In this document: positions 695 to 31,612 of the stretch, one piece after another
How the letters are laid out: each line of letters begins with the position of its first letter
Position numbering within the stretch: position 1 is the first letter of the stretch
NCBI RefSeq assembly: GCF_001294455.1
Contig: NZ_LIKT01000028.1
Span: 1 to 59,260 of the forward strand
Direction: 5' to 3'
Source: Phaeobacter sp. 11ANDIMAR09
Lineage (GTDB): Bacteria > Pseudomonadota > Alphaproteobacteria > Rhodobacterales > Rhodobacteraceae
Length of the DNA stretch: 59,260 bases
Notes under the pieces: generated by a model
Seen by the model: the letters and a program-made list of their open reading frames with translations, nothing else
Databases searched by the model: none
Told to the model about the DNA's origin: nothing
Program-made: the position numbers and the translations under genes

Positions 695-1999
695 TTGATA
701 CAAAAATTTTTTCTGGTTTGGCTAATGTGCTTGGCCTCGATTGCGCGGGCTGATCTATTGGATCTTTCAGAGTATGGCGATTTCAAGAAGATTTACTACA
801 TCCCAGAAGCTTCCGCTGACAACGTCGAAGTGCGCTTATTCCTGCCGGTCGGTGAGGCGGATAGAACCGGGGCTGAAGGCCTTGCGCATTATCTTGAGCA
901 TTTGGTCGTCTGGTCCGCTGACAAAGTGCACGGCGAAGGCTTTCGCAATCGAGAAATGAATGCTTGGACCTCGCCTTTCTGGACAGCCTATTGGAACCGC
1001 GGCCCTAAAGATTCAACTGTGAATATGCTTCGCAATGCCCGTGCCGTGTTTGAGCCTGTGCAGCTTGACCAAGACTTTATGCTCACCGAACGGGACGTTG
1101 TTGAGCGGGAATTTGACCTTCGCTATCGTGATAATCCGACAGCGGTGCTCTATCGCGAGGCCTTTCATCATTTGTATGGCGATCATGGGCTTGGTCGCTC
1201 TGTCATGGGGACGCCTGATAGTCTTCGACAGTTGCCCGTCAAAGAGGCTTTGGCATTTCATCAGCAACGGTATAATGCGCAAGACGCATATCTGTTGATG
1301 TCTGGACCACTTACGAAGGAACAGATAATAGGGCAGATTGAGGAGCACTTACGTGGCTTGCCAAAACGCGCAGCCATTGCGCGAGGTTTTTCGTCGCCAC
1401 TGCCCCGCCCACCATCAAGTTCCCTAACGCTGAATCTACCAAAGCTGGAGCGTGAGCTGGTGCTTTTTGTTGGCCAAGCGCAGCCCCCAGTCGAATTTTC
1501 ACGCCGCAAGATTTGGTTCTCTCTGCTCCTATTGGAAGATATCCTGAATTCCTCTTTGCAGGGTGGACTAGCTAAGCCCTTATACTATGACCGTTTTACG
1601 GTTACCAAGATCAGCGCCAAACTCTATCTGCTGCCAACCGGTGATATTGGCTATGAGTTTTTCTTCGCCCCGGAAGATGGTATCTCTGCCCAACAGGCAT
1701 TGAGCCGCGTTCAAAATCTTCTGCACCAGCTGGCAGACGACAGCATTCCAGATGAAACGTTAAAATCGCTCCGGGGCCGCACCTTAGAACAGGTGCGTCG
1801 TTTTGAAAAAGATGATCCGCACTACGCTACAACGATCGCGCAACAGAGCATCTTGAACCTTGGTGAAGCACTTGATGTGAAAACCTATCACTATGAGCTG
1901 GGGCGGCCCAGCTTGTCAGACTTGACTGCGATCCTGGCTTCAATTGTTGCCAGCCCTTTTGCAACAACTGCAATCACCAATCCGGAGTTATCCCAATGA
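695..1999 (+). CDS. M16-family zinc peptidase, catalytic subunit, exported
   Basis: Predicted 434-residue zinc metallopeptidase of the M16 (pitrilysin/PqqF/processing peptidase) family. It starts at TTG with GAGG seven bases upstream. Residues 1-19 form a signal peptide (MIQKFFLVWLMCLASIARA), so it should act in the periplasm or at the membrane. The inverted zinc motif HxxEH is present as H65-Y-L-E68-H69, with a candidate third ligand among the Glu residues near 132-139. The length fits a one-half M16B subunit that pairs with a partner. The next gene overlaps by four bases (ATGA) and encodes that partner. With the following ABC and HlyD genes it forms a protease-exporter operon, so leader removal from an exported peptide is a reasonable but unproven role. 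General protein quality control is the alternative. Confidence 0.85.
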   Translation: MIQKFFLVWLMCLASIARADLLDLSEYGDFKKIYYIPEASADNVEVRLFLPVGEADRTGAEGLAHYLEHLVVWSADKVHGEGFRNREMNAWTSPFWTAYWNRGPKDSTVNMLRNARAVFEPVQLDQDFMLTERDVVEREFDLRYRDNPTAVLYREAFHHLYGDHGLGRSVMGTPDSLRQLPVKEALAFHQQRYNAQDAYLLMSGPLTKEQIIGQIEEHLRGLPKRAAIARGFSSPLPRPPSSSLTLNLPKLERELVLFVGQAQPPVEFSRRKIWFSLLLLEDILNSSLQGGLAKPLYYDRFTVTKISAKLYLLPTGDIGYEFFFAPEDGISAQQALSRVQNLLHQLADDSIPDETLKSLRGRTLEQVRRFEKDDPHYATTIAQQSILNLGEALDVKTYHYELGRPSLSDLTAILASIVASPFATTAITNPELSQ

Positions 2000-3372
2000 A
2001 GACCTTCTTCAGCGCTCTTTGCCGCGCCGCTATGGTCCTGTTCCTGTTGACCGGGCAGGTTGTTGCCTATGAAATCACAGAACAAAAAACGCCAGATGGC
2101 TATGATTTCACCTATGTCCATATGCCAAAGGCAAACCGTACAGCCGTTTCAATTGCCTGGGTTGGCGGCTACGGGTTTTTATCGTCTCGCAAAGAGAACA
2201 TCGAAGAGCTGGGCCCGATCCTGATGATCAATGGCGGTGCGGGCGGCCTCAGTCCGGATGAAGTCGTCGCACGGTTCAACGCCATTGACAGCGGCGCACG
2301 CCTTTATTTGGACGATGATGCCCTGCGTGGATTTATTGTGGCTCCGGCCAAGGACTTGGGCGAGGCCTCAACAATAGCCAACAAGGTTCTCGCCGAACCG
2401 ACCTTCGATCCGCGCTGGTTAAAGCGGTTCCAACGTAACTATGTTGAAAACGTCAGGGGGTATAGTAAAACCCCGAAAGGGCAGGCGTGGCTGTCGCTGC
2501 GTAATATCACTGTCGGAAACCACCCCCTGCGACAAGTGTGGAATGGTACTCCAACGCAGAATATTTCCAGTATAACCATCGACGACGTCAGCGACTGGTA
2601 CGCGCGTACCGTGACGACAGATGGCTTGGAGATCGCAGTTGCAGGGGATGCCAAACCGACGGCCGTTGCCGAAGCCATTGACACTGCGTTGCGCGCGCTG
2701 CCGAGCCAAAACGCACGCGAGGATTTGCCGCCTCTGCAAATGCACTATCCGGCCAAGACCATCCTGATCCATCGTCCCGAGGCAGAGAAATCCTTCATAC
2801 TGATCGGCGGCCCGATCCCCCCTTCTTACAGCGTGGATTACGAAGCCTTGCAGCTCGCCACCGGAGTGTTGGGGGTATCGGATCAGTCACGTTTGTTTAC
2901 AGCGGTCAGAAAAGAATTGCGTGCATCCTATGGGTTTAGTGCGCATTTTTCCGATTTCACGCGGGCCAACGGGATGCTCTATATGCAGGGCGAGGTCGAG
3001 ACCGCTAAGCTGCAAAAAGCACTGGAAACAGTTCAACGCACCTATGAAACCTTCCGTACAGTTGGCGTTGGCATGGTTGAGTTTCCATTTGCGCATCGCA
3101 TTTTCAAGAACCGTGTGCGCAGCAATATGGACAAACCCGATACCATCGCACATCTTTTGACCGAAGCGCAGTTGACAGGCCGGAGTTCTTCGTCGGGTTT
3201 GCAGTATCTCGAACGCGTAGAGGGCCTTTCACGCGCCGAAGTCAATGCAGCAATCCTGCGCCATTTTCCAAAGTTCGATGACATGGTGAAGATCGTCGTC
3301 AGCCCTGACAGAGACGCAGTCAAAGCGGATTGCGTCATCTCCGCTTTTTCGGACGCCGCCGACTGCCGTTGA
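1996..3372 (+). CDS. M16-family peptidase-like subunit without zinc site
   Basis: Predicted 458-residue M16-family partner subunit. The N-terminus (MKTFFSALCRAAMVLFLLTGQVVA) is a signal peptide. No HxxEH motif is visible, so it should not bind catalytic zinc. The C-terminal half keeps the family segment AVRKELRASYGFSA (starting near residue 302), whose Arg and Tyr shape the active site in two-chain M16B enzymes. In characterised heterodimers of this family, one chain brings the zinc motif and the other the Arg/Tyr pair, and the gene pair here fits that scheme. Start and upstream stop overlap as ATGA, implying translational coupling and equal amounts of both chains. Two Cys near the C-terminus could form a disulfide. 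Confidence 0.82.
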   Translation: MKTFFSALCRAAMVLFLLTGQVVAYEITEQKTPDGYDFTYVHMPKANRTAVSIAWVGGYGFLSSRKENIEELGPILMINGGAGGLSPDEVVARFNAIDSGARLYLDDDALRGFIVAPAKDLGEASTIANKVLAEPTFDPRWLKRFQRNYVENVRGYSKTPKGQAWLSLRNITVGNHPLRQVWNGTPTQNISSITIDDVSDWYARTVTTDGLEIAVAGDAKPTAVAEAIDTALRALPSQNAREDLPPLQMHYPAKTILIHRPEAEKSFILIGGPIPPSYSVDYEALQLATGVLGVSDQSRLFTAVRKELRASYGFSAHFSDFTRANGMLYMQGEVETAKLQKALETVQRTYETFRTVGVGMVEFPFAHRIFKNRVRSNMDKPDTIAHLLTEAQLTGRSSSSGLQYLERVEGLSRAEVNAAILRHFPKFDDMVKIVVSPDRDAVKADCVISAFSDAADCR

Positions 3373-3380
3373 GTTAATGC

Positions 3381-5060
3381 ATGACCAATGAAATGAGCCA
3401 TCAAAAGGAGAGCCTGCAGCCTAAAGAAATTCCTCTTTCTTGGTTTGGAAAAACACTTTGGAAGTTCACGCCGCTCTATGTTGAACTCGTCTTTCTGGCT
3501 GTTTGCACCCGGCTGTTGGGGTTGGTTGAACCCTTCATATTTCAGGTGATTATCGACCGAATACTACCTTTTGAACGTGAAGCGACTTTGGTCGTCGTAG
3601 TACTGATCTTTGCTGCCGTTAGTATTTTCCATATTGGGTTCAATATCCTGTCAAGTCTGCTAGGTATGCTTACCGCAAACCGTGTCACTAGTGAGCTTGG
3701 AAGACGAATATTTGAGCACTTGTTTCGGTTGCCATATGAGCATTTCAGAAGATGGCCCGTCGGCGAGACCATTGCTCGTATCAGTGAAACAGACACTATA
3801 CGGTCCTTCCTCGTTGGCACGACCACAGGCGTATTTCTCGATCTTCTCTTCGTAGTAATTTACCTTTCCGTACTCTTTGCACTTTCTCCTACTCTCACTG
3901 CTATTGTATTGATTTCCCTGCCGGTCCAAGCATTTGTGTACTTCGTTTTTGGACCCTTTTTGCGTCGTAGATTACGTGCACAATTTGATGCAGGAGCACG
4001 GCATCAGTCGAGAATGGTCGAAAATATTGGAGGCATAGCAGCGATCAAAGCGCTTAGTGCAGAAGATAAAATGCTCGACAGCCTTGATGAGACACTCCAC
4101 GCAAGCCTGGATGCAGGGTATCGAGTGGGCAAACTAAACATTGTCAGCAGCAATTTAGTTTATGCTGTCAGCCAAACACTCACAATCTTGATTATTTTTT
4201 TCGGAGCGAGGCTGGTGTTTTCAGGTGATCTAACCCTTGGCCAATTGATCGCTTTTCATCTTGTCACAGAGAAAATAGCATCACCAATAAGCAACTTCTC
4301 CGGTCTTTGGGAAAAGTGGCAGAACATCAGAATTTCCCGCCAACGGCTCGGAGATATCTTACTTTCTGCTCCAGAACCTTTTGGAACACTTCCAAGATTG
4401 CCGGAAAATGTTAAGCCCGAACTTAGATTTGAAAACGTATCCTTTGAATACCATCCCGGTGCACCAATACTGAAGCATTTTTCTTTTACAACTCAGCCTC
4501 AAAGCTTGACCCTTGTTGTGGGACCATCTGGCATTGGGAAAAGCACGTTTGGGCGTCTTGCGGCGGGCATCGAAAGTCCCGCGAAGGGAACCGTTCTATT
4601 GGGGGGTAATGATATCGCACAACACGAACCGCATGATGTGCGTACAAAGATCGCTTACGTTCCACAAGAACCCTACCTGTTTTCAGGAACGATACGCGAA
4701 AACCTCGTCCTGAGTGCAGCTAGTGCGAGCCCGACGCAAATTAGAGGTGCATTACGGGCAGCTGCTGCGGACGAGATGGTAGAACAACTCCCAATGGGGC
4801 TGGATACACAAGTCGGAGAACGCGGAGCCGCCTTGTCGGGTGGACAACGTCAGCGCGTTGCCATAGCTCGCTCACTGCTCAACAATCCCAAGGTATTGAT
4901 CCTGGATGAACCAACCAGTGCCCTAGATGATGCAGCACAAAACCGAATGATCTCAGAGATTCAGAGCCTTCGAAACCACATGACAGTAATCGTTATCACG
5001 CACCGTCCGGAGGTCTTCTCTAACGCAGATCAAGTCGTGAACTTCGAGGCTCTAAGATGA
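3381..5060 (+). CDS. Type I secretion ABC transporter (HlyB-like, no C39 domain)
   Basis: Predicted 559-residue half-transporter that would form a homodimer in the inner membrane and energise export through a tripartite channel. Residues about 20-310 form a six-helix transmembrane domain with HlyB-like wording (FQVIIDRILPF). The nucleotide-binding domain has Walker A GPSGIGKST (near residue 381), signature LSGGQRQR (near 486) and Walker B VLILDEPTSALD. Bacteriocin exporters often carry an N-terminal C39 peptidase that cuts double-Gly leaders; here the protein begins almost directly with the membrane domain, so that activity is absent. The M16 pair upstream or the zinc peptidase at 8683 may do this job. 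The ribosome binding site is weak. An alternative ATG lies 12 bases downstream. HlyD overlaps its stop codon. Confidence 0.88.
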   Translation: MTNEMSHQKESLQPKEIPLSWFGKTLWKFTPLYVELVFLAVCTRLLGLVEPFIFQVIIDRILPFEREATLVVVVLIFAAVSIFHIGFNILSSLLGMLTANRVTSELGRRIFEHLFRLPYEHFRRWPVGETIARISETDTIRSFLVGTTTGVFLDLLFVVIYLSVLFALSPTLTAIVLISLPVQAFVYFVFGPFLRRRLRAQFDAGARHQSRMVENIGGIAAIKALSAEDKMLDSLDETLHASLDAGYRVGKLNIVSSNLVYAVSQTLTILIIFFGARLVFSGDLTLGQLIAFHLVTEKIASPISNFSGLWEKWQNIRISRQRLGDILLSAPEPFGTLPRLPENVKPELRFENVSFEYHPGAPILKHFSFTTQPQSLTLVVGPSGIGKSTFGRLAAGIESPAKGTVLLGGNDIAQHEPHDVRTKIAYVPQEPYLFSGTIRENLVLSAASASPTQIRGALRAAAADEMVEQLPMGLDTQVGERGAALSGGQRQRVAIARSLLNNPKVLILDEPTSALDDAAQNRMISEIQSLRNHMTVIVITHRPEVFSNADQVVNFEALR

Positions 5061-6385
5061 CCCGGCACAGAGCCTCGCAAAATGTAGCATCGCCCACTTT
5101 GCATGGGACCATCATTTTCACTGTGTCAGTTTTCTTCGCTATCCTGATCATGTCTTATATGTTCAAAGTAGAGATCGTGGCCAAAGGGATCGGAAAGGTC
5201 GTTCCCATTGGAAGAGTGCAGGTTGTACAGCCCGAGTTTGGCGGGCAAATCCGAGCTATCCATGTACGTGATGGGATCCGTGTTTCCAAAGGTGAAGTGG
5301 TCATTGAGCTTGATCTAACCAACGCCCAAGCTGCACAGAACACACTAGAAGCGGAAGATGAGCGGTTGCGCATTGAGCGATACCGAATAGAAACTGTCAT
5401 TTCTGCTCTGTCACTGCATCAAGATCTAGACGATGGTACCGTCTTCCAAAAGATTACCGAGTTCAAAGAGTTCAGACCAAAGTCTCAGGTCAAATTTTTC
5501 AACGAACAGCGCGCGCTCATGAAGGCGGAATTGTCGGAGCTCTCTGACGCGCTTGCTCAGGTAGACGCCAGAATCCAAGCCAATGAAAAATCGAAATCCG
5601 TAACCCAAGCGGGTATCTCACGCATAGAAACCGCGCTAGTTACCCAGCAAGAACGACTTGTATCGGCGCAAAGCCTATTGGAAAAAGGTGCGACCAGTCG
5701 ATCAAGCTATCTTGACGTTCTCGATGGATTCAACCGCCTTGAAACAGAGAGAGAGGTGTTTTTGCGCGAGCTGGATGAAAAGGCAGCCTTGGGTACCGCT
5801 CATCTGGCCGAGCGATCTGGCATTCTCTCTGCCCTACGAAGTCGGCTTCAAACCAGGAGAGCCGAACTTGAAGCCAGGCGTGCAACCCTATCTGAAGAAC
5901 TCGTGACCAATCAAAGACGTCTTGAAAATACCAAGCTTATTGCGCCGGTATCTGGAACTGTAGATCAACTATCAGTGTTCACGATCGGTGGTATTGTTGA
6001 TGCGGGACAAGAGTTGCTGCGTGTTGTTCCTGAGGATCAGGAATTCGAGATTGAAGCCATTTTCCCGAACACCGATGTTGGATTTCTTGAGGTTGGCCAG
6101 CGCGTTAATATCAAACTGGACGCCTACCCTGCGGAACGTTTTGGCGCATTACGAGGATCAGTGACAAATATCTCAGCTGACGCGGTTGAAGTTGATGACA
6201 ATGTCTACGGGTTCGTTATCCGCATTCAACCTGAAACAATGGCGCTTGAGACACCGGCCAATAGCTATGCAATCCAGCCTGGCATGACATCTACCGTAGA
6301 TGCCATCACAGGTGACAGGCGGATTATTAGCTACTTCTTCGCGCCTATAGTTAAGGTTGTTCAGGAAAGTTTAGGGGAGAGGTAA
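5057..6385 (+). CDS. HlyD-family membrane fusion protein
   Basis: Predicted 442-residue periplasmic adaptor that links the ABC transporter to an outer-membrane TolC-type channel. It has one N-terminal membrane anchor (about residues 17-37), a lipoyl-type beta segment, a long coiled coil (about 85-290) and the HlyD C-terminal region ending in the typical TVDAITGDRRIISYFFAPI. ATGA overlap with the ABC gene indicates coupled translation. No TolC gene is present in the window, so a chromosomal copy would be needed. The gene ends the plus-strand operon and faces the peptide genes on the opposite strand. Confidence 0.9.
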   Translation: MTRHRASQNVASPTLHGTIIFTVSVFFAILIMSYMFKVEIVAKGIGKVVPIGRVQVVQPEFGGQIRAIHVRDGIRVSKGEVVIELDLTNAQAAQNTLEAEDERLRIERYRIETVISALSLHQDLDDGTVFQKITEFKEFRPKSQVKFFNEQRALMKAELSELSDALAQVDARIQANEKSKSVTQAGISRIETALVTQQERLVSAQSLLEKGATSRSSYLDVLDGFNRLETEREVFLRELDEKAALGTAHLAERSGILSALRSRLQTRRAELEARRATLSEELVTNQRRLENTKLIAPVSGTVDQLSVFTIGGIVDAGQELLRVVPEDQEFEIEAIFPNTDVGFLEVGQRVNIKLDAYPAERFGALRGSVTNISADAVEVDDNVYGFVIRIQPETMALETPANSYAIQPGMTSTVDAITGDRRIISYFFAPIVKVVQESLGER

Positions 6386-6429
6386 CAAGAGTTGGATCCG
6401 GTACCGAGAAGGCTCCCCTCGCAATAAAC

Positions 6430-6603
6430 TCAGTGTTTTCGAAGATAAGAGATCCCCAAAAACAATGCAAAGAAAACGGCAAAGAACGCAAAGTTTGCAA
6501 AGCTAAGAATTTCAGACCCAGAAGTGTAATTGGTAAATAGCGAAAAAAGAATTGTCGAGAGTACCGAAGCTACCCCAGTTTTTTTGATCATGTCGGAATT
6601 CAA
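6430..6603 (-). CDS. Small two-helix membrane protein, candidate immunity protein
   Basis: Reading the minus strand gives a 57-residue open frame. It starts at TTG (6603), with AAGGGAG placed seven bases upstream; an in-frame ATG at 6591 gives 53 residues but lacks a spaced ribosome binding site. The product begins MNSDMIKKTGVASV and has two hydrophobic segments, about residues 10-24 and 32-51, joined by a short polar NYTSGSE loop, and ends YLRKH. It resembles no family I recognise. It lies 66 bases downstream of the Gly-rich peptide gene on the same strand, the usual place for a bacteriocin immunity gene, and small double-span proteins are common among those. That role is inference from position and shape only. 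Confidence 0.55.
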   Translation of the reverse strand: MNSDMIKKTGVASVLSTILFSLFTNYTSGSEILSFANFAFFAVFFALFLGISYLRKH

Positions 6604-6631
6604 TGTTAATCTCCCTTGACTTTGAAGAATT

Positions 6632-6654
6632 CCCCGCCCTTTGGAAGGGCGAGG
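6632..6654 (-). promoter_or_regulatory. Stem-loop between peptide gene and membrane-protein gene
   Basis: A 10-bp stem (6632-6641 with 6645-6654, one G-U pair in minus-strand RNA) closes a three-base loop. It sits between the stop of the Gly-rich peptide and the ribosome binding site of the next gene. It is not followed by a clean U-run on the minus strand, so it may stabilise or process the peptide mRNA rather than terminate it. On the plus strand it is followed by a short T-rich stretch and may help end the exporter operon. Confidence 0.5.
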
Positions 6655-6669
6655 AGATTACTCTCTTTT

Positions 6670-6954
6670 TTACCGACCGAAACAGGCGTCACTACCAAGC
6701 CCACCAGCAACACCGCCAGACACCATACCTCCGAGCCCTCCAGCCGCACCGCCAGCTGCAGCACCTCCGGGACCTCCAAGCACTCCGCCTGCTACCGCAC
6801 CACCTGCAAGTCCGGCAACACCACCGATAGCAGCTCCTTCGGCAATATCTCCCACACATTCACTGATGCCACCACCTTCGCCGCCACCGCCGCCACCACC
6901 AAAGCTGATCGGTGCAAAAAGATCGGCAGGATAAATATCGTCATTGTTGAACAT
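6670..6954 (-). CDS. Gly/Ala-rich peptide, candidate secreted precursor
   Basis: This 94-residue product has AAGGA about eight bases before its ATG. The first 18 residues are acidic and hydrophobic (MFNNDDIYPADLFAPISF), like a leader. Then come seven Gly, E26, three Gly and ISEC, followed by about 50 residues of Gly-Gly pairs spaced by Ala, Val and Leu, a glycine-zipper pattern expected to make packed membrane helices, and a short tail SDACFGR. About 35 of 94 residues are Gly. There are exactly two Cys (C33 and C91), no Lys, and one Arg at the end. The composition resembles the pore-forming cores of class II microcins and other bacteriocins. Neighbours are tailoring-enzyme genes upstream, a two-helix membrane protein downstream, and a protease/exporter operon facing it. 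I propose it as the exported precursor; no known family matches by eye. Confidence 0.65.
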   Translation of the reverse strand: MFNNDDIYPADLFAPISFGGGGGGGEGGGISECVGDIAEGAAIGGVAGLAGGAVAGGVLGGPGGAAAGGAAGGLGGMVSGGVAGGLGSDACFGR

Positions 6955-7010
6955 TTTGTGTTCCTTTGGATTTTGGCAACCTTTTGTGTTATAATTGCCA
7001 TTGCTGTTTT

Positions 7011-7096
7011 CTGGGATTAGTCCCAGAGGCTCAAACGGGCGGTTGGTTGGTCTAGAACCAGCCGCCCAACTTACGATTACCTGATGGCAATCGTAA
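7011..7096 (-). terminator. Three stem-loops between hydroxylase gene and peptide gene
   Basis: Three inverted repeats follow the stop of the JmjC-like gene on the minus strand: TTACGATT/AATCGTAA (7071-7078 with 7089-7096), GGGCGG/CCGCCC with an inner TGGT/ACCA arm (7037-7067), and CTGGGA-TTAG-TCCCAG (7011-7026). None has a long U-run, but together they should end or reduce transcription from the enzyme operon. The peptide gene therefore probably has its own promoter at about 6975-7010, where I see only a loose -10-like TATAAC on the minus strand. Confidence 0.45.
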
Positions 7097-7109
7097 TCTC
7101 GGGAGGTCG

Positions 7110-8231
7110 CTAGTAACGCCAGAAGTAACTCACAGACATCGTCGGGCTATCCAATGCGAAGACTTGGTGGAACCAGCCCGCGGGCTGCACCAATAATTCG
7201 CCTGGATGCAGATCAACTGAAATCGATTTGGCCCCTTTGGCTTTCGGAAACAGATCATACCGGGGCTTATGCGGGTTGAACCAGCACGATTGATAGTAGC
7301 TGTAAGCCTTCTTGGGATACAACAAATCTGCCTGATCCGCAGAAAAAAGCTCCAACCGTTTACGCCCCATGACCTGGAATAGAAATCCCGTGGTTGGATC
7401 GCAGTGTAAAGCAGTTGCTGGTGTGTTTGTCGAAACGGACCCTAGCCAAAGCTGAGCCGGTATGAAATCCTCGCGATCAAAGAACATTGGCCCAAAATCA
7501 TCCCACATCTCATGTGGCATCTTCACACCTTCGGTATAGGCCTTATCCAAGGTCGTGTCGTTCTCAAGCTCTGGCTTTTCTTCAAAGAGACGCATTTGAT
7601 CAGCCAGCTCTCGCAATGTGATCTTCAGCTCTGAAGAACGACGGCAAACAATTGAATCGCCATATTTTTCGACCAGCCAATCAATTGTCCAATCCTTGCA
7701 GGGCGGTGAGGGCTCTAACCCTGTAATGATAGTCGGCAAACCTTCATCAATTGCTTCGAGCAACTGATGCTGAGATGGCAAATGAAGTCGCACCACTTCG
7801 TCAAGGTTCCGATGCCCTTTCTTCTTGTGTAGGGCGCGAAGGGCTGCAAGCCTGTCAATCGTAGTGTTTGAGGGCCTGACACAGGACATGCCGAGCTGGA
7901 ACGCTAGATCTAGATTGCCTTCGAGCTCGACGGTTCCAAGAATCTCAGGGCTGCGCCAATCTAGGATTTCGTAGTCTCTGAATATGGTTTCTAAAGTAGC
8001 AAGCGGAAAGGTCATTCTTGTGTCGACCGGGTGCTCATGAATAGGCCTGACGATCTTAAGCGCCTCGCCGAACACCGCTAGGAAATCAAGTTCCGGATGA
8101 TCAACTACCTGAACAAGAACTGTGCCCGAAATCTCATACGGATTCTCAAAACCTCCCTCCAGAAGCTGGATAAGTCCATTTACGGTCTCTTCTGCCGATG
8201 CGAACTCCGGCGCAGGATATGCAACGTTCAT
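7110..8231 (-). CDS. JmjC/cupin-8 Fe(II)/2-oxoglutarate oxygenase-like protein
   Basis: Predicted 373-residue cupin-fold oxygenase of the JmjC/cupin-8 group, the family of ribosomal oxygenases and FIH. The iron triad is visible as H276-x-D278 in TALHCDPTTGFLFQVMGRKR and H355 in PAGWFHQV. Such enzymes hydroxylate side chains of proteins or peptides using O2 and 2-oxoglutarate. The N-terminal 200 residues are less clear and may bind substrate. Its start overlaps the HlyC-like gene stop by four bases, so it belongs to the same operon as the two acyltransferase-like genes. The Gly-rich peptide encoded next is the natural candidate substrate. Substrate and product are not visible in the sequence. 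Other peptide or ribosomal targets remain possible. Confidence 0.78.
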   Translation of the reverse strand: MNVAYPAPEFASAEETVNGLIQLLEGGFENPYEISGTVLVQVVDHPELDFLAVFGEALKIVRPIHEHPVDTRMTFPLATLETIFRDYEILDWRSPEILGTVELEGNLDLAFQLGMSCVRPSNTTIDRLAALRALHKKKGHRNLDEVVRLHLPSQHQLLEAIDEGLPTIITGLEPSPPCKDWTIDWLVEKYGDSIVCRRSSELKITLRELADQMRLFEEKPELENDTTLDKAYTEGVKMPHEMWDDFGPMFFDREDFIPAQLWLGSVSTNTPATALHCDPTTGFLFQVMGRKRLELFSADQADLLYPKKAYSYYQSCWFNPHKPRYDLFPKAKGAKSISVDLHPGELLVQPAGWFHQVFALDSPTMSVSYFWRY

Positions 8232-8689
8232 GAGGAGGAAACTCTCTGGCTTGCGGTTTCATGTATTGCGGGGCGCTTCCAGTGATTTACTCGCCGAACA
8301 GAGCCATCTAGGTTCCGTCGAACACTTGACGCGGTTCGAACCTTTGGAAAAACGTTGTTCATCATATCGCGAACGTAGTGACGTACACCCCCATAGGGCG
8401 CGACCCAGTCATTCATGAACATGCGGTCACCACACTGCCACTCGTCTCTTGAAAGAGCCCGGCCAGTTGCGTGAATTTCCTTCTCAACGCTCTCGTTGAT
8501 CCAAGCCCAGGTGATCATGGCAGCAGGCACGCCGCGCTCGTCGAGATAAAACCTGATTTGGTGAGACCAGATGGCGGGAAGGATTTCCGTTCTGTAATAG
8601 TCCCCCAGCTTGTGTTGCCCATGGTAGGGTGAACGCGCAAGTAGTTCCAAAGCGAAGCCAGTGCTTGCATAACTATCCAAGTTCACCAT
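8228..8689 (-). CDS. HlyC-type toxin-activating acyltransferase homologue
   Basis: This 153-residue protein matches the RTX toxin-activating lysine acyltransferases (HlyC family) along most of its length. Both catalytic residues known from HlyC (His23 and Asp92) are kept: H23 in SPYHGQH and D94 in MNDWVAPYGG. Other family wording includes LPAIWSHQIRFYLDERGVPA and DEWQCGDR. HlyC enzymes move a fatty acyl group from acyl carrier protein to internal lysines of a protoxin. No RTX protoxin lies nearby, and the adjacent Gly-rich peptide has no lysine, so the acceptor must be another residue type, the peptide N-terminus, or another protein. It overlaps the upstream peptidase gene by seven bases and the downstream oxygenase gene by four, a tightly coupled operon. 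Confidence 0.85.
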   Translation of the reverse strand: MVNLDSYASTGFALELLARSPYHGQHKLGDYYRTEILPAIWSHQIRFYLDERGVPAAMITWAWINESVEKEIHATGRALSRDEWQCGDRMFMNDWVAPYGGVRHYVRDMMNNVFPKVRTASSVRRNLDGSVRRVNHWKRPAIHETASQRVSSS

Positions 8690-9927
8690 GCGATTTGTGC
8701 CTGCCTTGCGCTTCGCTCATTTTTGGAGCTCGCTGTTTTGGCGTGCGGTAGCCGTCGCTTCAAACTACGTTGCAAACGTAGATGATCGCCAAAGGGCGCT
8801 GCTTGCCGAGTGAATTCAACATGCTCTGGATTTTGGTCACTTTCATTCCAAGTGGCGTAGCCAATAGGCTTGTTTTCATCCCCAATCACCACATAAGCTG
8901 TTTGGGTTTGCAGGTGATGAAGCAGCCTATTGTAATATTTCGAAATAGACATTTCAGAGTGACCCAATAAGTAATCGAGATCGAGGTAGGTCATCATGCC
9001 GAGCGTACGGTACGCTTCAATTGCAGGAAGGTCGGATTTCTCCGTAGGTATTTCTGGGAAATAGTTTTTCATTAGGACGCTATCCGAATTTTGACGTTTC
9101 GTCGGGAAAGGCAATGGGTGGCCACCGAAGTACTCCGCAGCAAGTTTGTTCAACATCCTCCCCCCGTTCGCCCCGGCAGCATATATTTTGCTCAACTGTG
9201 TCGACTTGCAGCGTTGGAAGAGAGTTTGCGAAAAATACCGAGCCAATGGATAGTTCCAGGCATATTGATATTGTCGTTGACCATCCAATAGCGCCGCTTC
9301 GAGAGAAGACTTGTGTGCGCCAAAATAGGTATTATCGTCCGCATTGTAGGCGCTACAAATGGAAGCTGAGGACAGTTCATTGAATTGTAGAATGGCGAGT
9401 TCCGATATGAATGCGCACCATTCCCGCGCAACAGGCGGCATCTGCCCTTTTCCACTCTTCCAACTTGCCACAATTTGCACTGCGTGACCGAATTCATGAG
9501 CCATTGTGAGCAAGTCCGCAACGCAGCCTTGGTAGTGCAAACTGACAAACGGTAACTTCCTGTGACCAAGGTCATATGTGAACGGCATTGGATGCTTCGC
9601 CTTATTGGGCGCCAAACACCTTGGGGCGTCCGTCGAAACCCTAGCTATTTCGTCAGACAGCTCTGGTATCGCGATGCACAATGACGTTGCACACTGCGCC
9701 CATGCCTCGTCCGCCGTCATGCAGGAGTTGATACGCTCCTTCGAAACAATCCTTGAGGTGTTCATCGGCTCGACGATCCGCTCGAGGTGGGAAAGCACGT
9801 CCTTTTTCTCAAAGTCATTAAAAATACACCAATCACAAATGGTTTGTCGACTTCCCATAAGGGGGCTTCTATCCAACAGCGGCATGTCGGCTTCACCAAG
9901 GAGGCATTTTAACTCTAAAGGGAACAC
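8683..9927 (-). CDS. M3-like zinc peptidase fused to degenerate HlyC-like domain
   Basis: This 414-residue product starts at GTG 9927; a stop lies four codons upstream, and no strong ribosome binding site is present. Residues about 60-290 look like the catalytic half of an M3 (oligoendopeptidase F-like) metallopeptidase: H144-E-F-G-H148 is the zinc motif and E176 in FISELA is a plausible third ligand. The large N-terminal helical part of full-length M3 enzymes is missing. Residues about 303-400 read like a HlyC acyltransferase: GHSEMSISKYYNRLL, a strand pattern ending KPIGYATW, then AAPFGD. H323 aligns with HlyC His23, but the position of Asp92 is Arg (R374) and the middle part is shortened, so transfer activity is doubtful. 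It may bind the substrate or the active HlyC encoded next and couple acylation to cleavage. I know no described protein with this architecture. Confidence 0.75.
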   Translation of the reverse strand: MFPLELKCLLGEADMPLLDRSPLMGSRQTICDWCIFNDFEKKDVLSHLERIVEPMNTSRIVSKERINSCMTADEAWAQCATSLCIAIPELSDEIARVSTDAPRCLAPNKAKHPMPFTYDLGHRKLPFVSLHYQGCVADLLTMAHEFGHAVQIVASWKSGKGQMPPVAREWCAFISELAILQFNELSSASICSAYNADDNTYFGAHKSSLEAALLDGQRQYQYAWNYPLARYFSQTLFQRCKSTQLSKIYAAGANGGRMLNKLAAEYFGGHPLPFPTKRQNSDSVLMKNYFPEIPTEKSDLPAIEAYRTLGMMTYLDLDYLLGHSEMSISKYYNRLLHHLQTQTAYVVIGDENKPIGYATWNESDQNPEHVEFTRQAAPFGDHLRLQRSLKRRLPHAKTASSKNERSARQAQIAW

Positions 9928-10001
9928 GTAAAATTCTCACAAAAACATCCCTTCACAATAAACAACCCTGGAGGGAGATCAATGATTTTTTTGACGAGCA
10001 T
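9915..10001 (-). CDS. Possible 28-residue peptide gene overlapping the peptidase start
   Basis: An ATG at 10001 with AAGGTGAG nine bases upstream opens a 28-codon frame (MLVKKIIDLPPGLFIVKGCF, then a short Cys-containing tail) ending inside the first codons of the peptidase gene in another frame. The ribosome binding site is better than that of the GTG start at 9927. It could be a translation-coupling leader, a second small peptide (it has three Lys and three Cys), or the remnant of a frameshifted N-terminus of the peptidase. Nothing in the sequence decides between these. Confidence 0.3.
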   Translation of the reverse strand: MLVKKIIDLPPGLFIVKGCFCENFTCSL

Positions 10002-10441: not shown

Positions 10442-10548
10442 TTAGCCTGCCGTGAAAGCCTTACGCCACCTGTACTCACCGGTGAGTAGGATGTGGGCCC
10501 AACCGAGTGGCGAGATGTGCGCCAAGAGCTCAGGTTGGCAGTCGAGCC
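10442..10548 (-). pseudogene. Tn3 transposase C-terminal remnant
   Basis: The minus strand encodes LDCQPELLAHISPLGWAHIL and then LTGEYRWRKAFTAG before a stop, nearly the same as the C-terminus of the intact transposase encoded at 11350. The preceding reading frame is unrelated, because at about 10549 the DNA switches to an internal transposase segment in the opposite orientation. It is a dead fragment left by an inversion or deletion. Confidence 0.8.
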
Positions 10549-11302
10549 CGGCGCGGCGATACGCTGACTTTAAGCAGGCCTTGGTACCTCTCGCTGCCGT
10601 GCAAAACACGCCACGCTTGAGTATCCCGTTCGAGCCACATGAATGGTTGGATGATCGTAAGGCCCGTTTGAGAAATGGGCTTGAACGATTAGCGCACGCT
10701 GCCAGAAACGGGACAATCCCCGGCGGATCAATAGAAAATGGCACTCTCAAGCTTGACAGACTGTCCGCCGATGTTCCCGCTGAAGCAGATCAACTCGTGT
10801 TGGATTTATATCGCCGTATTCCTGATGTCCGCATCACAGATATTCTGCTGGATGTTGATAAGGCCACTGGGTTTACAGATGCCTTTACGCATTTGCGAAC
10901 CGGCGTTCCGTGCAAGGATAAGATTGGCTTGTTGAATGTCCTGCTGGCAGAGGGTTTGAACCTCGGGCTGAGCAAAATGGCGGAGGCGTCCAACACCCAC
11001 GAATATTTCCAGCTCTCACGTATATCGCGATGGCATATAGAAAGTGATGCTATCAATCGGGCACTCGCTATGGTGATCGAAGCGCAATCAGCGTTACCCA
11101 TGTCCAGATTCTGGGGTGCTGGCTTAACCGCTTCCAGCGACGGGCAATTCTTCCCGGCCACCCCTCAGGGCGAGGCGATGAACCTTATCAATGCCAAATA
11201 TGGCAACGGTCCCGGGCTGAAAGCCTACACCCACGTCTCGGATCAATTCGGGCCATTTGCCACTCAGAATATCCCGGCAACCGTGGGAGAGGCACCCTAT
11301 AT
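10549..11302 (+). pseudogene. Tn3 transposase internal remnant, inverted and cut
   Basis: The plus strand encodes about 250 residues of a Tn3-family transposase core (ADFKQALVPLAAVQNTPRLS at the beginning, then GLNLGLSKMAEASNTHEYFQ and DGQFFP), clearly related to but not identical with the equivalent part of the intact TnpA. It has no start of its own and stops matching at ATVGEAPYM, exactly where the terminal repeat of the intact transposon begins (11303). The intact element evidently inserted into an older relative. Confidence 0.85.
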
Positions 11303-11340
11303 GGGGTCTGATCCGGTAAGGGGCAGGATAGTACGCTAAG
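11303..11340 (+). repeat. Left 38-bp terminal inverted repeat of the transposon
   Basis: Starts GGGGTCTGATCC and ends GCTAAG. It lies 10 bases beyond the stop of tnpA, the normal arrangement in this family, and is the TnpA binding and cleavage site. Confidence 0.85.
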
Positions 11341-11349
11341 CCGGATTGG

Positions 11350-14235
11350 TTATCGTTTTGGCCATCTGTATTCGCCGGTTAGCAAAATATGCGCCCACCC
11401 GAGCGGTGAGATATGCGACAGGAGCTCTGGTGGGCAATCTCGACCATCGTGCAATCTTGCCGTAACCGCGCGCCCGAGATGATCCGTGTTCCAATAGATG
11501 ATGATCGCGGCCAATAGATTCAGGCCAGCCATCCTGTAGTGCTGACCTTCAGCCGTTCGGTCCCGGATTTCACCTTGCCTGCCAATCCGCAGAGCGTTCT
11601 TCAAAGCGTGATGCGCTTCACCCTTGTTCAAGCCAATCTGGGCACGGCGCTGCATGTCAGTGTCCAGCAACCATTCGACAATAAACAGGGTGCGCTCGAT
11701 GCGGCCGATCTCCCGCAGAGCAACTGCCAGCTCATGCTGACGCGGGTACGATGCGAACTTCTTCAGCAGTTGGCTGGGCGGCATGATCCCTGCCGCCATT
11801 GTCGCAACAGCGCGCAGGATGTCCGGCCAATTCTGGGCAATCAGGTTTTCCCGAATCTTGCTGCCGACCAAGCCGCGCAACTCCTTGGGGGCTGTTGAGG
11901 GCTCGAATACATACAAGCGTTTGGATGGCAGATCCCGGATACGCGGGATGAATCGATAGCCCAGCAGGGCCGAAACGGCAAAGACATGATCGGTGAATCC
12001 ACCGGTGTCGGTATATTGCTCTTTGATCCGCTTGCCGGTTTCATTCATGAGCAGGCCATCAAGGATGTAGGGCGCTTCGCTCACCGTAGCCGGAATGTTC
12101 TGGGTAGCGAATGGCCCGAACTGGTCGGATACGTGGGTATAGGCTTTCAACCCTGGCTCATTGCCGTATTTTGCATTGATCAGGTTCATCGCCTCACCCT
12201 GACGAGCCGCCGGGAAGAACTGACCATCACTGGACGCGGTGACACCTGCACCCCAGAACTTTGCCATCGGCAATCTGGATTGTGCGTCAATGACTGCCGC
12301 CAGTGCCCGGTTGATGGCATCGCTTTCGATGTGCCACCGGGACAGGCGTGACAGTTGAAGGTAATCATGGGTGTTGCTGGCTTCGGCCATTTTGCTCAGG
12401 CCGAGATTCAGCCCCTCTGCCAGCAGAACATTCAGCAGCCCAATCCTGTCCTTACAAGGCGCACCTGTTCGCAGATGGGTAAAGGCGTCTGTGAATCCAG
12501 TGGCCTCATCCACTTCCAGAAGCAGATCGGTGATGCGTATATCTGGAAGTTGGCGATAGAGATCGAGGACAAGCTCTTCCGCCTCGTCAGGTACGGCGGT
12601 TGTTAGTCGTTCGATCTTGAGCGCGCCATTCTCTATAGACCCGCCGGGGATGGCTCCGTGCCTGGCAGCCCGCGCTAAACGGTTCAGGCCGTCGGCTATC
12701 CGCACCTTTCGATCTGAAAGCCAAGTGACCGGATCAAGAGGCATTGTTAATCTGGGGATGGTGGTAACGGCTGAAATTGGCACAAGGACCTGCTTCAAAT
12801 CAGCGTAGCGCTTTGAATGTCCCAGCCAGATATCCCCGGAACGGAAAGCATCGCGTAGATGAAACAGCACGGCGACCTCCCAAAGGCGATGGTCATCCTC
12901 CGGCTGAGTTTTAAGATTTCGATGCCATTTCGAGTTTTTGCGCAGAAAATCTGTCGGTTTTGCCCGGTCGACTTTTCCACCAATTGACTCAGTGGCATTC
13001 ACCAAGGGAATGGCGACCGGGGCGGCCTTGATGTCCAGCGCTTTCAGCATGCGTGGGGCATAGCGCCGGAACCGGCGATGTCCTTGAACGACATGAGCAA
13101 GTGGGTCCGCAGCCATGGTGTTGGTCAATTGCGCCGACGTGGCAACCAGCTCCTCCAAGACCGGCCATCCAGGTGTGTCCGAAACGGTGGTTTCTAGGGA
13201 TGCACCATCGCTGTGCGCGGCAAGTAAGGCAGTTCCCAACTCTGTGAAGGAGCGCAGCGTTTGCTGGACAGCGACCTTTGCGTCGTCAACGCGGGAGTCG
13301 CACAGCCTCTTGGCATCTCGCCAAGTCTTTCCAACGATCCGATCATGGGTTTCGACAACAGCGTCGGCGATAGCAGCCCGCCACCCCACCGCGCAGACCG
13401 CTAGAATGGCCAACCGTCTGTCGCTGGTAATGTCCCGCAACCCGTCCGCGAAATACCGTTCACCCTGTCTGCGCACCCGGGCAATCCGATGAGGCGGTAC
13501 ATCGTCCAGAATTTCGGCCGGCAACTCGATAGCCTGCAAGAAATCCAATCGATCAAGCAGACGACTAGCACCTGCCGAGTTTTGTCCGACTTCAAACTGG
13601 CGCAACCAAACAAATCGGCTGACCCGTTCATCGACCAGTTCCGTCAGCAATGCATCCAATTGGAATTGCATCGCTTCACTGAGACGATCCGCAATACGGC
13701 TGTCGATCTTCCGTTCTGAGACAACCAAGGCATCCGCACAAAGCCGTTCAACAACAGAGACACCGGGCAGGACTGTATGCGTATGGCGGCATTGCTCGAC
13801 GAACCGCCGGGCCAAATCCAAACTGGATCGTGCCGTTTCTGCTTCCAGTGTCAGCCACGCTTTCAGATCACGTGCCCCCTGACCCGAGAACATCTTGTAT
13901 CCATAAATCTCCCGAAGATCGGCAAGATGTTCGCGCCGGGTTTCAGCCCGGTGCGCGTAATCCGTCAAATCCTCGGGCGCTATGCCCAGCTGTGCCGCCA
14001 GAAACTCGGTGATCTCGGATGGAATGACTTCTCCCGGCTGCAACAGCCGACCCGGATAGCGAAAGACACAGAGCTGCAAAGCAAACCCAATACGGTTTTG
14101 TGCCCGGCGTCGGGATCGGATGTGTTCGATGTCATCATCGGCAAGCGTATAATGCCGGAGCAGGGTCGCTTCATCGGATGGAAGATCAAATAGCGCCGCC
14201 CGTTGTCGGTCGCTCAAAATCTGGCGTCTTGGCAA
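11350..14235 (-). CDS. tnpA: Tn3-family transposase
   Basis: Predicted 961-residue transposase that cuts and joins at the 38-bp repeats and makes cointegrates by replication. I place the start at TTG 14235 (protein LPRRQILSDRQRAALF), with AGGAA just upstream; the frame stays open further but that part looks non-coding. The N-terminal DNA-binding region (about 1-250) is followed by the DDE catalytic domain (about 580-950), with characteristic wording GLNLGLSKMAEASN, WGAGVTASSDGQFFP, HISPLGWAHILLTGEYRW. The length is normal and no stop interrupts it, so it is probably active. It is divergent from tnpR, with the probable res site in the 160 bases between. Confidence 0.93.
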   Translation of the reverse strand: MPRRQILSDRQRAALFDLPSDEATLLRHYTLADDDIEHIRSRRRAQNRIGFALQLCVFRYPGRLLQPGEVIPSEITEFLAAQLGIAPEDLTDYAHRAETRREHLADLREIYGYKMFSGQGARDLKAWLTLEAETARSSLDLARRFVEQCRHTHTVLPGVSVVERLCADALVVSERKIDSRIADRLSEAMQFQLDALLTELVDERVSRFVWLRQFEVGQNSAGASRLLDRLDFLQAIELPAEILDDVPPHRIARVRRQGERYFADGLRDITSDRRLAILAVCAVGWRAAIADAVVETHDRIVGKTWRDAKRLCDSRVDDAKVAVQQTLRSFTELGTALLAAHSDGASLETTVSDTPGWPVLEELVATSAQLTNTMAADPLAHVVQGHRRFRRYAPRMLKALDIKAAPVAIPLVNATESIGGKVDRAKPTDFLRKNSKWHRNLKTQPEDDHRLWEVAVLFHLRDAFRSGDIWLGHSKRYADLKQVLVPISAVTTIPRLTMPLDPVTWLSDRKVRIADGLNRLARAARHGAIPGGSIENGALKIERLTTAVPDEAEELVLDLYRQLPDIRITDLLLEVDEATGFTDAFTHLRTGAPCKDRIGLLNVLLAEGLNLGLSKMAEASNTHDYLQLSRLSRWHIESDAINRALAAVIDAQSRLPMAKFWGAGVTASSDGQFFPAARQGEAMNLINAKYGNEPGLKAYTHVSDQFGPFATQNIPATVSEAPYILDGLLMNETGKRIKEQYTDTGGFTDHVFAVSALLGYRFIPRIRDLPSKRLYVFEPSTAPKELRGLVGSKIRENLIAQNWPDILRAVATMAAGIMPPSQLLKKFASYPRQHELAVALREIGRIERTLFIVEWLLDTDMQRRAQIGLNKGEAHHALKNALRIGRQGEIRDRTAEGQHYRMAGLNLLAAIIIYWNTDHLGRAVTARLHDGRDCPPELLSHISPLGWAHILLTGEYRWPKR

Positions 14236-14396
14236 TTCTAATTCCTGTATGTGGGGGATTGGCTTGTCCGTAAGGGGATCGCTGAGCGGGCGAATTCCCG
14301 CCGCACATCCCTTCAACAAAACTGGCTCAAAGAGCGTCTCATATAGATGGTACGATAAAAATTGCAATGAAGGGGCCTTATTCGTACAGTTCGGCC
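14236..14396. promoter_or_regulatory. tnpA-tnpR divergent region, probable res site
   Basis: In Tn3-type elements with divergent tnpA and tnpR the resolution site and both promoters lie between them. The stretch contains AT-rich segments with TACGATAAAA and TTCGTACAGT that could be parts of resolvase half-sites, but I cannot assign subsites I, II and III with confidence. Confidence 0.45.
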
Positions 14397-14972
14397 ATGA
14401 ACACCACACTTATCGGATACGCCCGCTGCTCCACTGACAACCAGGACCTCACCGCACAGAAACAAGCGCTGGAAAGTCTCGGCGTTGCCCCGGATCATAT
14501 CTATACCGACCACGGGCTGACCGGCACCAACCGCACTCGTCCTGGTCTGGATCAGGCCATTGCCGCCGTGCGGGAAGGTGACACGCTGGTGGTTCCAAAA
14601 CTCGACCGGCTGGCCCGATCTGTTCCTGATGCCCGCGCCATAGCTGATCAACTCCAGGAGAAAGGCGTCAAGCTGGCTCTTGGAGCGTCCATCTATGATC
14701 CGACCGATCCAATGGGAAAAATGTTCTTCAACATCCTTGCCACCTTTGCCGAGTTCGAGGCCGATCTGATCCGCATGCGGACCCGCGAAGGCATGGCTAT
14801 CGCTCGTGCCAAGGGAAAACTGCGTGGCAAGCAGCCGAAGTTATCAGACAAACAGCAGAAGGAACTTTGCCGTATGCACGGCACTGGCGACTATTCCATC
14901 AGCGATCTGGCCGAGGTGTTTTCCGTGTCCAGGCCAACCGTTTACAGAACATTGAACAGGCACAAGACCTAA
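14397..14972 (+). CDS. tnpR: Serine resolvase
   Basis: Predicted 191-residue small serine recombinase that resolves transposon cointegrates at res. S12 in GYARCSTDNQ is the catalytic serine; the resolvase domain runs to about residue 140 (KLDRLARSVPDA, MGKMFFNILATFAEFEADLI) and a helix-turn-helix follows (YSISDLAEVFSVSRPTVYRT). The start is the ATG at 14397, which gives the usual N-terminus MNTTLIGYARCS. Confidence 0.93.
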   Translation: MNTTLIGYARCSTDNQDLTAQKQALESLGVAPDHIYTDHGLTGTNRTRPGLDQAIAAVREGDTLVVPKLDRLARSVPDARAIADQLQEKGVKLALGASIYDPTDPMGKMFFNILATFAEFEADLIRMRTREGMAIARAKGKLRGKQPKLSDKQQKELCRMHGTGDYSISDLAEVFSVSRPTVYRTLNRHKT

Positions 14973-24031: not shown

Positions 24032-24034
24032 ATC

Positions 24035-25342: not shown

Positions 25343-25364
25343 CCCTTTCAGGAAGGCCACGACT

Positions 25365-27499: not shown

Positions 27500-27642
27500 C
27501 AGAAAGAAACAGATTGTACCCAAGAGTATAGTTCGACCTCACCCTATTACTCAAAGAGGAGTTCTTTTTACAATTTAAGTCAAATAGTTGCTGGATGCTA
27601 TGGTGGTCTCAAGAACGAATTGAAAAACTTGGGAGCTCCGAA

Positions 27643-28110: not shown

Positions 28111-28139
28111 ACACGTTTCAATAAAGTGAGGTTTCAGCA

Positions 28140-29521: not shown

Positions 29522-29525
29522 CGGA

Positions 29526-31586: not shown

Positions 31587-31612
31587 GTTTGTTGTTTATT
31601 CGGAGATTGCCA

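What the first reader, a model, noticed from the sequence alone, without database searches (positions are those of the whole stretch)
695..10001. Possible new peptide (bacteriocin-like) biosynthesis and export system
Seen: a plus-strand operon (M16 protease pair, ABC exporter without C39 domain, HlyD) converges on minus-strand genes for a zinc peptidase/HlyC fusion, a HlyC acyltransferase, a JmjC oxygenase, a Gly/Ala-rich 94-residue peptide and a 57-residue two-helix protein. Known: each enzyme family acts on proteins or peptides. Inferred: they make, modify, cut, export and give immunity to a Gly-rich peptide. I know of no described class that combines HlyC-type acylation, JmjC hydroxylation and M16 processing.
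Basis: partly seen in the sequence, partly recalled or inferred. Interest (0 to 1): 0.92.

Follow-up and report, generated by a model that had tools for sequence, protein, structure and literature searches.

The report
Glycine-zipper peptide maturation and export locus
A bacterium carries a gene set, also found in a few related bacteria, that appears to cut, chemically modify and export a small glycine-rich peptide resembling known membrane-attacking bacteriocins, using an enzyme combination not found described in the papers searched.

Summary
In detail: all nine genes are at the stated places. I found 22 loci with the M3-like peptidase; a precursor was seen in 19 (of the other three, two run off their contig and one is broken). 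The precursors share, to differing degrees, a leader end like D-L-x-(S/A/G)-x-(V/I)-S-(F/Y), mostly followed by a Gly-rich core, in the window a glycine zipper. JmjC (6 of 22) and the M16 pair (7 of 22) are accessories. My reading: a RiPP-like, CDZ-like exported peptide system in which a cytosolic M3 peptidase, fused to a degenerate HlyC and partnered by an intact HlyC, cuts after S-F and probably fatty-acylates the new N-terminus. The usual HlyC target, lysine, is absent from the whole precursor in three loci with intact HlyC, the window among them. Residue +1 is Gly in 13 of 14 loci with intact HlyC and 0 of 5 without, but a prediction written down beforehand fitted only 2 of 3 new loci. The JmjC protein has an SCP2-like (lipid-binding) N-terminal fold. 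Killing, acylation and cleavage are inferred. Nine searches of an open paper library showed no description.

The parts
695..1999 (+). M16a: M16 peptidase with zinc motif HxxEH and signal-like N-terminus (TTG start)
   Evidence: Pfam M16_C 1.3e-8; HxxEH in 7 of 7 M16a examined
1996..3372 (+). M16b: partner without the zinc motif, signal-like N-terminus
   Evidence: Pfam M16_C 4.4e-18; HxxEH in 0 of 7 M16b examined
3381..5060 (+). HlyB-type ABC exporter, no C39 domain
   Evidence: besides the own genome, G063 and G220 among 295 genomes at E <= 1e-170
5057..6385 (+). HlyD-type periplasmic adaptor
   Evidence: TIGR01843 1.9e-91, above cut-off
6430..6603 (-). 57-aa small membrane protein, candidate immunity protein (TTG start)
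   Evidence: hydropathy; small hydrophobic ORFs after the precursor also in L086, L091, L092, L093, L148 and L160; no chance control was made
6670..6954 (-). 94-aa precursor peptide
   Evidence: leader compared over 19 loci; only match in own genome
6901..6954 (-). leader, residues 1-18, ending ADLFAPISF
6673..6900 (-). proposed core, residues 19-94: Gly run, two Cys, glycine zipper (13 overlapping GxxxGxxxG, no Lys)
7110..8231 (-). hydroxylase: N-terminal SCP2-like domain plus C-terminal JmjC domain, HxD...H intact
   Evidence: JMJD5 3.3e-20; SCP2
8228..8689 (-). HlyC-type acyltransferase with His23 and Asp94
   Evidence: (ApxC 2.1e-20)
8683..9927 (-). M3-like metallopeptidase (HExxH + Glu169) fused to a degenerate HlyC-like domain
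   Evidence: catalytic Asp absent from the HlyC-like domain in 9 of 9 fusion rows, His absent in 8 of 9, the window's own row having a His in that column

Best explanation
The locus makes and exports a ribosomal, leader-bearing, glycine-zipper peptide (RiPP-like, CDZ-like bacteriocin). Steps: (1) the 94-aa precursor carries a leader with the motif D-L-x-small-x-(V/I)-S-F [shown by comparison]. (2) The cytosolic M3-like/pseudo-HlyC fusion recognises it and cuts after S-F [inferred]. (3) The partner HlyC transfers a fatty acyl group to the N-terminal amine exposed by the cut, Gly in most systems [inferred]. (4) In some systems, the window's included, the SCP2-JmjC oxygenase binds the lipidated peptide and hydroxylates it [SCP2-like and JmjC domains shown, reaction inferred]. 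(5) The HlyB-type ABC exporter without C39 domain and HlyD secrete it [inferred from family]. (6) A small membrane protein downstream gives immunity and the periplasmic M16 pair trims or destroys peptide [inferred]. The product would insert into membranes of competitors, as glycine-zipper bacteriocins do [inferred].
For: Recurring locus at 22 places, precursor seen at 19. Leader positions not used for picking: Leu at -7 in 16 of 20 rows, Asp at -8 in 15 of 20. M3 HExxH and Glu169 intact in 21 of 21 rows aligned, the broken L096 left out. HlyC His/Asp dyad intact in 16 of 17. Gly at +1 in 13 of 14 loci with intact HlyC, 0 of 5 without; Fisher 0.0005, relatedness ignored. Sister loci L091 (HlyC His replaced by Gln; SF-SGN) and L093 (intact; SF-GGG), whose M3 halves are nearly identical. 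In the window's own genus G778 has no HlyC at the locus (no hit at E <= 1 in 15 kb) and reads SF-C. The pseudo-HlyC domain is missing where the locus has no HlyC: M3 proteins of 239-276 aa in L033, L084, L095, L148. No Lys in the whole precursor of three loci with intact HlyC: window, L031, L163. SCP2-like fold at the JmjC N-terminus. CDZ precedent for glycine-zipper peptides, T1SS and small membrane immunity protein (passages of PMC5380434).
Against: No biochemical evidence for any step. The prediction written before looking held in 2 of 3 new loci; L163 has intact HlyC but Ser at +1. Only 3 independent pairs exist on the tree; they nearly always agree (2.9 of 3 over 200 pairings) but the sign test cannot pass 0.25. 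Rows were picked with S-F/Y, so that part of the motif is circular. 8 of 15 cores in loci with intact HlyC do have Lys. G025 and G038, counted as without HlyC, carry more distant HlyC genes elsewhere in the genome (9.6e-9 and 1.5e-10). All characterised HlyC-type enzymes known to me act on lysine side chains. Small membrane ORFs were seen after the precursor in only 6 of 12 loci examined, without a chance control. Several cores (L031, L064, L084, L086b, L094) have 0 or 1 GxxxGxxxG.
Confidence: 0.5

Rival explanations
1. HlyC acylates a side chain (Ser, Thr, Cys, or Lys where present) of the core or leader; the Gly run is only a flexible linker or export feature, and its association with HlyC comes from shared ancestry.
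For: Counterexample L163 (intact HlyC, Ser at +1); 8 of 15 cores in loci with intact HlyC have at least one Lys; HlyC-type CdiC acylates a Lys (PMC8510554, passages).
Against: By reading, no residue other than the leader end and Gly is shared by the HlyC+ precursors; S-F is kept where the locus has no HlyC, so it is not a HlyC-specific acceptor; three precursors have no Lys.
Confidence: 0.3
2. The same machinery makes a surface, adhesion or matrix protein rather than an antibacterial peptide.
For: Family members L095 and L033 are long acidic GNEGDE-type repeat proteins, L064 and L097 carry the same kind of repeats, and CdzC itself aggregates on the cell surface.
Against: Most cores are short and hypervariable with a small membrane protein alongside in several loci, as in bacteriocin loci; patchy distribution: 2 of 12 genomes of the window's genus have the M3 gene.
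Confidence: 0.25
3. An ordinary CDZ-type glycine-zipper bacteriocin whose neighbours (HlyC, JmjC, M3, M16) are unrelated genes.
For: Gly-zipper core, type I exporter and small membrane protein resemble CDZ.
Against: M3-like and HlyC genes stay beside the precursor in distant genera and in a gammaproteobacterium, Vreelandella. The CDZ paper reports no obvious modification enzymes in the cdz cluster.
Confidence: 0.08
4. HlyC serves a large RTX toxin elsewhere in the genome and the small peptide is incidental.
For: HlyC family membership; a 1000-aa RTX-like ORF lies at 32374-35376 (read by eye).
Against: HlyC overlaps the M3 and JmjC genes and co-occurs with the precursor across genomes; I noticed no RTX gene in the ORF lists of the relatives' loci, which were read by eye and not searched for it.
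Confidence: 0.03

Closest known systems
CDZ system of Caulobacter crescentus (CdzABCDI)
   Same: Small glycine-zipper peptides, type I ABC/HlyD exporter, small membrane immunity protein, alphaproteobacterial setting (passages).
   Different: The paper reports no obvious modification enzymes in the cdz cluster and thinks CdzC/D likely unmodified; here an M3 peptidase, HlyC pair and in some loci JmjC or M16 are linked; two peptides in CDZ, usually one here; CdzI is predicted to have three membrane segments.
Toxin-activating acyltransferases HlyC/ApxC and the CDI acyltransferase CdiC
   Same: HlyC family with the His/Asp dyad; cdiC-less systems lack the acylated Lys (passages), the same kind of covariation as seen here at +1.
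   Different: Known substrates are large proteins modified on Lys; here three precursors have no Lys, and the enzyme is paired with an M3 domain.
Lipidated RiPPs (selidamides, lipolanthines, nostolysamides)
   Same: Ribosomal peptides that carry fatty acyl groups.
   Different: Selidamides recalled; lipolanthines seen in passages, nostolysamides in a listing with abstract start. Their lipidation routes, as I recall, are Lys-directed GNAT or polyketide ones, not HlyC with M3.
M16 heterodimers in RiPP maturation (PttP1/PttP2)
   Same: Paired M16 proteins (passages); here one of each pair has the zinc motif.
   Different: Here signal-like N-termini (read by eye) suggest a periplasmic site, and the pair is present in only 7 of 22 loci.
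JMJD5/FIH-type JmjC hydroxylases
   Same: JmjC domain, profile match to JMJD5 3.3e-20.
   Different: Fused to an SCP2-like N-terminal domain; substrate would be an exported peptide.

Membership tests
CDZ-like glycine-zipper bacteriocin | small peptide with GxxxGxxxG repeats | tested here: met
   13 overlapping GxxxGxxxG in the window core; 0 or 1 in L031, L064, L084, L086b, L094 and the two long-repeat members
CDZ-like glycine-zipper bacteriocin | dedicated ABC/HlyD type I exporter adjacent | tested here: met
CDZ-like glycine-zipper bacteriocin | no modification enzymes | tested here: not met
   HlyC, M3 and JmjC linked; so not filed as CDZ
CDZ-like glycine-zipper bacteriocin | contact-dependent killing and immunity | not testable with these tools
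   needs competition assay
RiPP | genetically linked precursor with conserved leader and variable core | tested here: met
   19 of 22 loci
RiPP | post-translational modification and leader removal | not testable with these tools
   needs mass spectrometry
HlyC/TAAT acyltransferase | profile match and His/Asp catalytic dyad | tested here: met
   9.8e-26; ApxC; 16 of 17
HlyC/TAAT acyltransferase | lysine side chain as acceptor | tested here: inconclusive
   no Lys in the linked precursor of window, L031, L163; another substrate cannot be excluded
M3 peptidase | HExxH plus downstream Glu, M3 fold | tested here: met
   21 of 21 rows; oligoendopeptidase F/Pz peptidase matches by profile and fold (best E 4.4e-4, TM-scores under 0.4)
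JmjC oxygenase | HxD...H iron ligands | tested here: met
   window, L086, L087, L160 yes; L031 no
SCP2 lipid-binding domain | SCP2 fold | tested here: met
   first 40 Foldseek rows are SCP2 proteins or alkylsulfatases, which by recall contain an SCP2 domain; best E 3.2e-4, 7 matches at E <= 0.001; the model is poor outside its N-terminus
double-glycine leader / C39 bacteriocin | C39 domain on exporter and GG cleavage site | tested here: not met
   no C39 reported; conserved leader end is S-F|G

The most novel reading that the evidence does not exclude
HlyC-type acyltransferases can act as protein N-terminal acyltransferases: an M3 peptidase carrying a degenerate HlyC domain, paired with or fused to a live HlyC, cuts a peptide and lipidates the fresh N-terminal residue in one complex, a bacterial counterpart in logic (tandem GNAT-like halves, N-terminal Gly) to eukaryotic N-myristoyltransferase, and a lipid-reading SCP2-JmjC oxygenase then hydroxylates the product: a new class of lipidated RiPP. 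The comparison with N-myristoyltransferase is recalled.
Probability: 0.35. Interest if true: 0.88.

Novelty: new variant of a known kind. Interest (0 to 1): 0.74.

Why it matters
It would add a class of exported, probably lipidated glycine-zipper peptides. It gives HlyC-type enzymes a small, lysine-free candidate substrate, so their acceptor rule becomes testable on a 94-residue peptide instead of a giant RTX toxin. It also links a peptidase, two HlyC domains and a lipid-binding-like hydroxylase in one pathway, and supplies a leader motif for finding more.

Tried and rejected
Plasmid collection: no match to the M3-HlyC protein by tblastn nor to the 9.3-kb locus by megablast. IMG/VR scan with the M3 alignment: 206 pattern stretches, no relative. 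Class sample: of 385 genomes only the own one plus a weak hit, 7.0e-11, in a 618-aa frame of PepF size. The 20 regions around HlyC hits fetched: only L064 belongs to the family. Most M3 matches (162 of 295 genomes) look like ordinary PepF-type peptidases (E >= 4.2e-5, listed frames mostly of about 610-650 aa); only G000, G063, G025, G038 are real relatives. In one search I kept 14 of 53 loci (E <= 9e-14) and dropped 39 (E >= 1e-7) as ordinary peptidases.

Idea that another acyltransferase replaces HlyC where +1 is Cys: the 207-aa gene in L148 matches phrog_308, internal virion protein (2e-12), but hhalign shows no relation to HlyC, Pfam, NCBIfam and PDB give nothing usable, and the 175-aa gene in L084 is not clearly related to it. 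Dropped as a claim. Strict rule 'intact HlyC means Gly at +1': broken by L163. Strict motif SFGGGG: absent from the four loci found later.

Alignment A5 placed the pseudo-HlyC rows on the live HlyC of L093. This shows the kinship (and served) but was no use for a model, so A7 was used instead. The JmjC model is poor outside its N-terminus.

Literature: nine searches of the PMC library showed no description of this system; papers outside that library were not searched. The Ruegeria pomeroyi killing paper (PMC7426152) mentions glycine zippers only in its reference list.
Full report
OBSERVATION. The plus-strand set M16a-M16b-ABC-HlyD (695-6385) converges on the minus-strand set M3/HlyC fusion - HlyC - JmjC - 94-aa peptide - 57-aa protein (9927-6430). 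Gene overlaps of a few bases on both strands suggest two operons. No C39 domain is reported for the ABC protein. To the right stand a fragment of a Tn3-family transposase (10452-11339) and a full Tn3 transposase gene (11350-14409), so the locus lies in mobile surroundings. No other copy of the peptide was found in the genome.

FINDING RELATIVES. The M3/HlyC fusion gave three real relatives besides the window among 295 family genomes. The HlyC protein gave two (G063, G326) at E < 1e-30 among 394. Further sampling added G778, of the window's genus (2 of 12 genomes of that genus have the M3 gene), and G957, G824 and G811 (G952 in that call proved to be the L097 locus again). Counting each place once gives 22 loci including the window: window, L031, L033, L064, L084-L097, L148, L160, L161, L163. 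Titles place the named ones mostly in Rhodobacteraceae, with Nitratireductor (L088, L090) and Vreelandella (L092), a gammaproteobacterium by recall.

WHAT IS CONSTANT AND WHAT IS NOT. A precursor was seen in 19 of 22 loci; L087 and L089 run off their contigs and L096 has broken frames. Anchored on the motif, positions not used for picking are conserved over 20 rows from 19 loci: Leu at -7 in 16, Asp at -8 in 15, a small residue (S/A/G) at -5 in 19, Gly at +2 in 18. S at -2 and F/Y at -1 were used for picking and are circular. Small ORFs with SFGGGG occur in 10 of 18 family loci and 0 of 58 controls (19 HlyC loci outside the family and 39 ordinary peptidase loci). That pattern was chosen after seeing some of the peptides, and the four loci found later do not have it in strict form (S-F-CGG, S-Y-GGD, S-F-GGH, S-F-SGG). 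JmjC is present in 6 of 22 (window, L031, L086, L087, L089, L160; incomplete in L089, iron ligands lost in L031). The M16 pair is present in 7 of 22 (window, L091-L094, L148, L163). The zinc motif is in 7 of 7 M16a and 0 of 7 M16b examined, a set that held the separate contig L152 and not L163. The HlyB-type exporter is present, whole or cut, in 14 of 22; four loci (L033, L064, L095, L097) have a much weaker-matching ABC/HlyD pair; four show none in the stretch held.

ENZYMES. M3-like: HExxH and the third ligand Glu169 in 21 of 21 rows, L096 left out as broken; profile and fold matches to oligoendopeptidase F and Pz peptidase (model mean pLDDT 73.7; fold matches weak in TM-score). Its C-terminal part is HlyC-like (ApxC match 2.4e-5 over the end of the profile, although fused rows that carry a live HlyC contribute to that profile; aligned to live HlyC). 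In that alignment the catalytic Asp is absent from 9 of 9 fusion rows and the His from 8 of 9; the window's own fusion has a His in that column. HlyC: dyad intact in 16 of 17; L091 has Gln for His. In L064, L091, L093, L097 and L163 the M3 part and HlyC form one chain. JmjC protein: best solved relatives JMJD5 and FIH. Its N-terminal domain, modelled at pLDDT about 72-87 for residues 11-80, matches SCP2 folds. SCP2 domains bind fatty acyl chains (recalled; entry 1pz4 with a C16 fatty acid is in the list). An SCP2 domain on the hydroxylase is what one would expect if its substrate is already lipidated; this is inference.

WHERE DOES HLYC ACT? The characterised HlyC-type enzymes that I know of acylate lysines; CdiC does, needs His37 and Asp107 for full activity, and cdiC-less systems lack the Lys (passages of PMC8510554). 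Here the whole precursor has no Lys in three of 14 loci with intact HlyC (window, L031, L163), and 7 of 15 cores have none (the second, 862-aa precursor of L064 was not counted). The residue after S-F is Gly in 13 of 14 loci with intact HlyC and in 0 of 5 whose locus has none or a His-less one (Cys in L084 and L148, Ser in L091, L095, L033); Fisher 0.0005, ignoring relatedness. No HlyC relative shows at E <= 1 in the stretches held of L033, L084, L095 and L148, but G025 (L095) and G038 (L033) carry distant HlyC genes elsewhere. On the M3 tree three independent pairs differ in HlyC state and nearly all random pairings agree at +1 (2.9 of 3), which cannot be significant. L091 and L093 have almost identical M3 parts but different HlyC domains and differ at +1 as expected. 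I wrote the prediction down before opening four new loci. One was a duplicate; of three new ones L160 (S-Y-GG) and L161 (S-F-GG) fit and L163 (S-F-S, then Gly) does not. Where the locus has no HlyC the pseudo-HlyC tail of the M3 protein is absent too (lengths 239-276 aa against 327 aa or more elsewhere, the 327 being cut at a contig end). Together this favours cleavage after S-F and acylation of the exposed N-terminal residue, but it is not proof.

WHAT THE PRODUCT DOES. The window core has 13 overlapping GxxxGxxxG patterns, 46% Gly and two Cys. CDZ of Caulobacter is a glycine-zipper two-peptide bacteriocin with a type I exporter and a small membrane immunity protein; its authors note no obvious modification enzymes and think CdzC/D likely unmodified (passages of PMC5380434). 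Small hydrophobic ORFs follow the precursor in 6 of 12 loci examined (no chance control) and in L160 (by eye); the window's is the 57-aa protein. A bacteriocin-like role is the best guess, but long acidic GNEGDE-type repeat proteins in L033 and L095 use the same kind of leader end beside an M3 protein, so a surface role is possible for part of the family.

NOVELTY. Nine searches of the open PMC library showed no description of this system. Filed as a new variant of known kinds (RiPP, glycine-zipper T1SS bacteriocin), not as a CDZ member because the 'no modification enzymes' feature is not met.

Noticed in passing
L033 4043-7168, L095 11004-14201, L064 12208-14796, L097 11718-12086: Exported-looking proteins with acidic GNEGDE repeats and a leader ending in S-F, near an M3 domain protein; similar 2OG oxygenase genes stand near in L033, L064, L096 and L097 (by reading; only the L064 one was tested: 2OG-FeII_Oxy_5 and TIGR02466). 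A sister system, perhaps hydroxylated.
   Followed up: partly
L091 1719-3305 and L093 3462-5048: Near-identical M3 halves joined to different HlyC domains: looks like a recent domain swap that went with a change in the precursor.
   Followed up: partly
L148 4066-4689: A gene matching phage internal virion proteins (phrog_308, 2e-12) sits where HlyC would be in another species of the window's genus; the ABC gene there is cut short.
   Followed up: partly
window 10452-14972: Tn3-family transposase fragment, full Tn3 transposase and a resolvase-like ORF (by eye) beside the locus.
   Followed up: no
window 32374-35376: 1000-aa RTX-repeat-like ORF at the end of what reads as a polysaccharide cluster (19310-32257); read by eye.
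   Followed up: no
L091 32-772 and L093 1135-2514: A prophage/tail-like gene with near-identical N-terminus lies directly upstream of both loci (by eye), hinting at a shared insertion point.
   Followed up: no
L152 1-4345: G220 carries an M16 pair and a 71% identical ABC exporter on a short contig; the rest of its locus was not found.
   Followed up: partly
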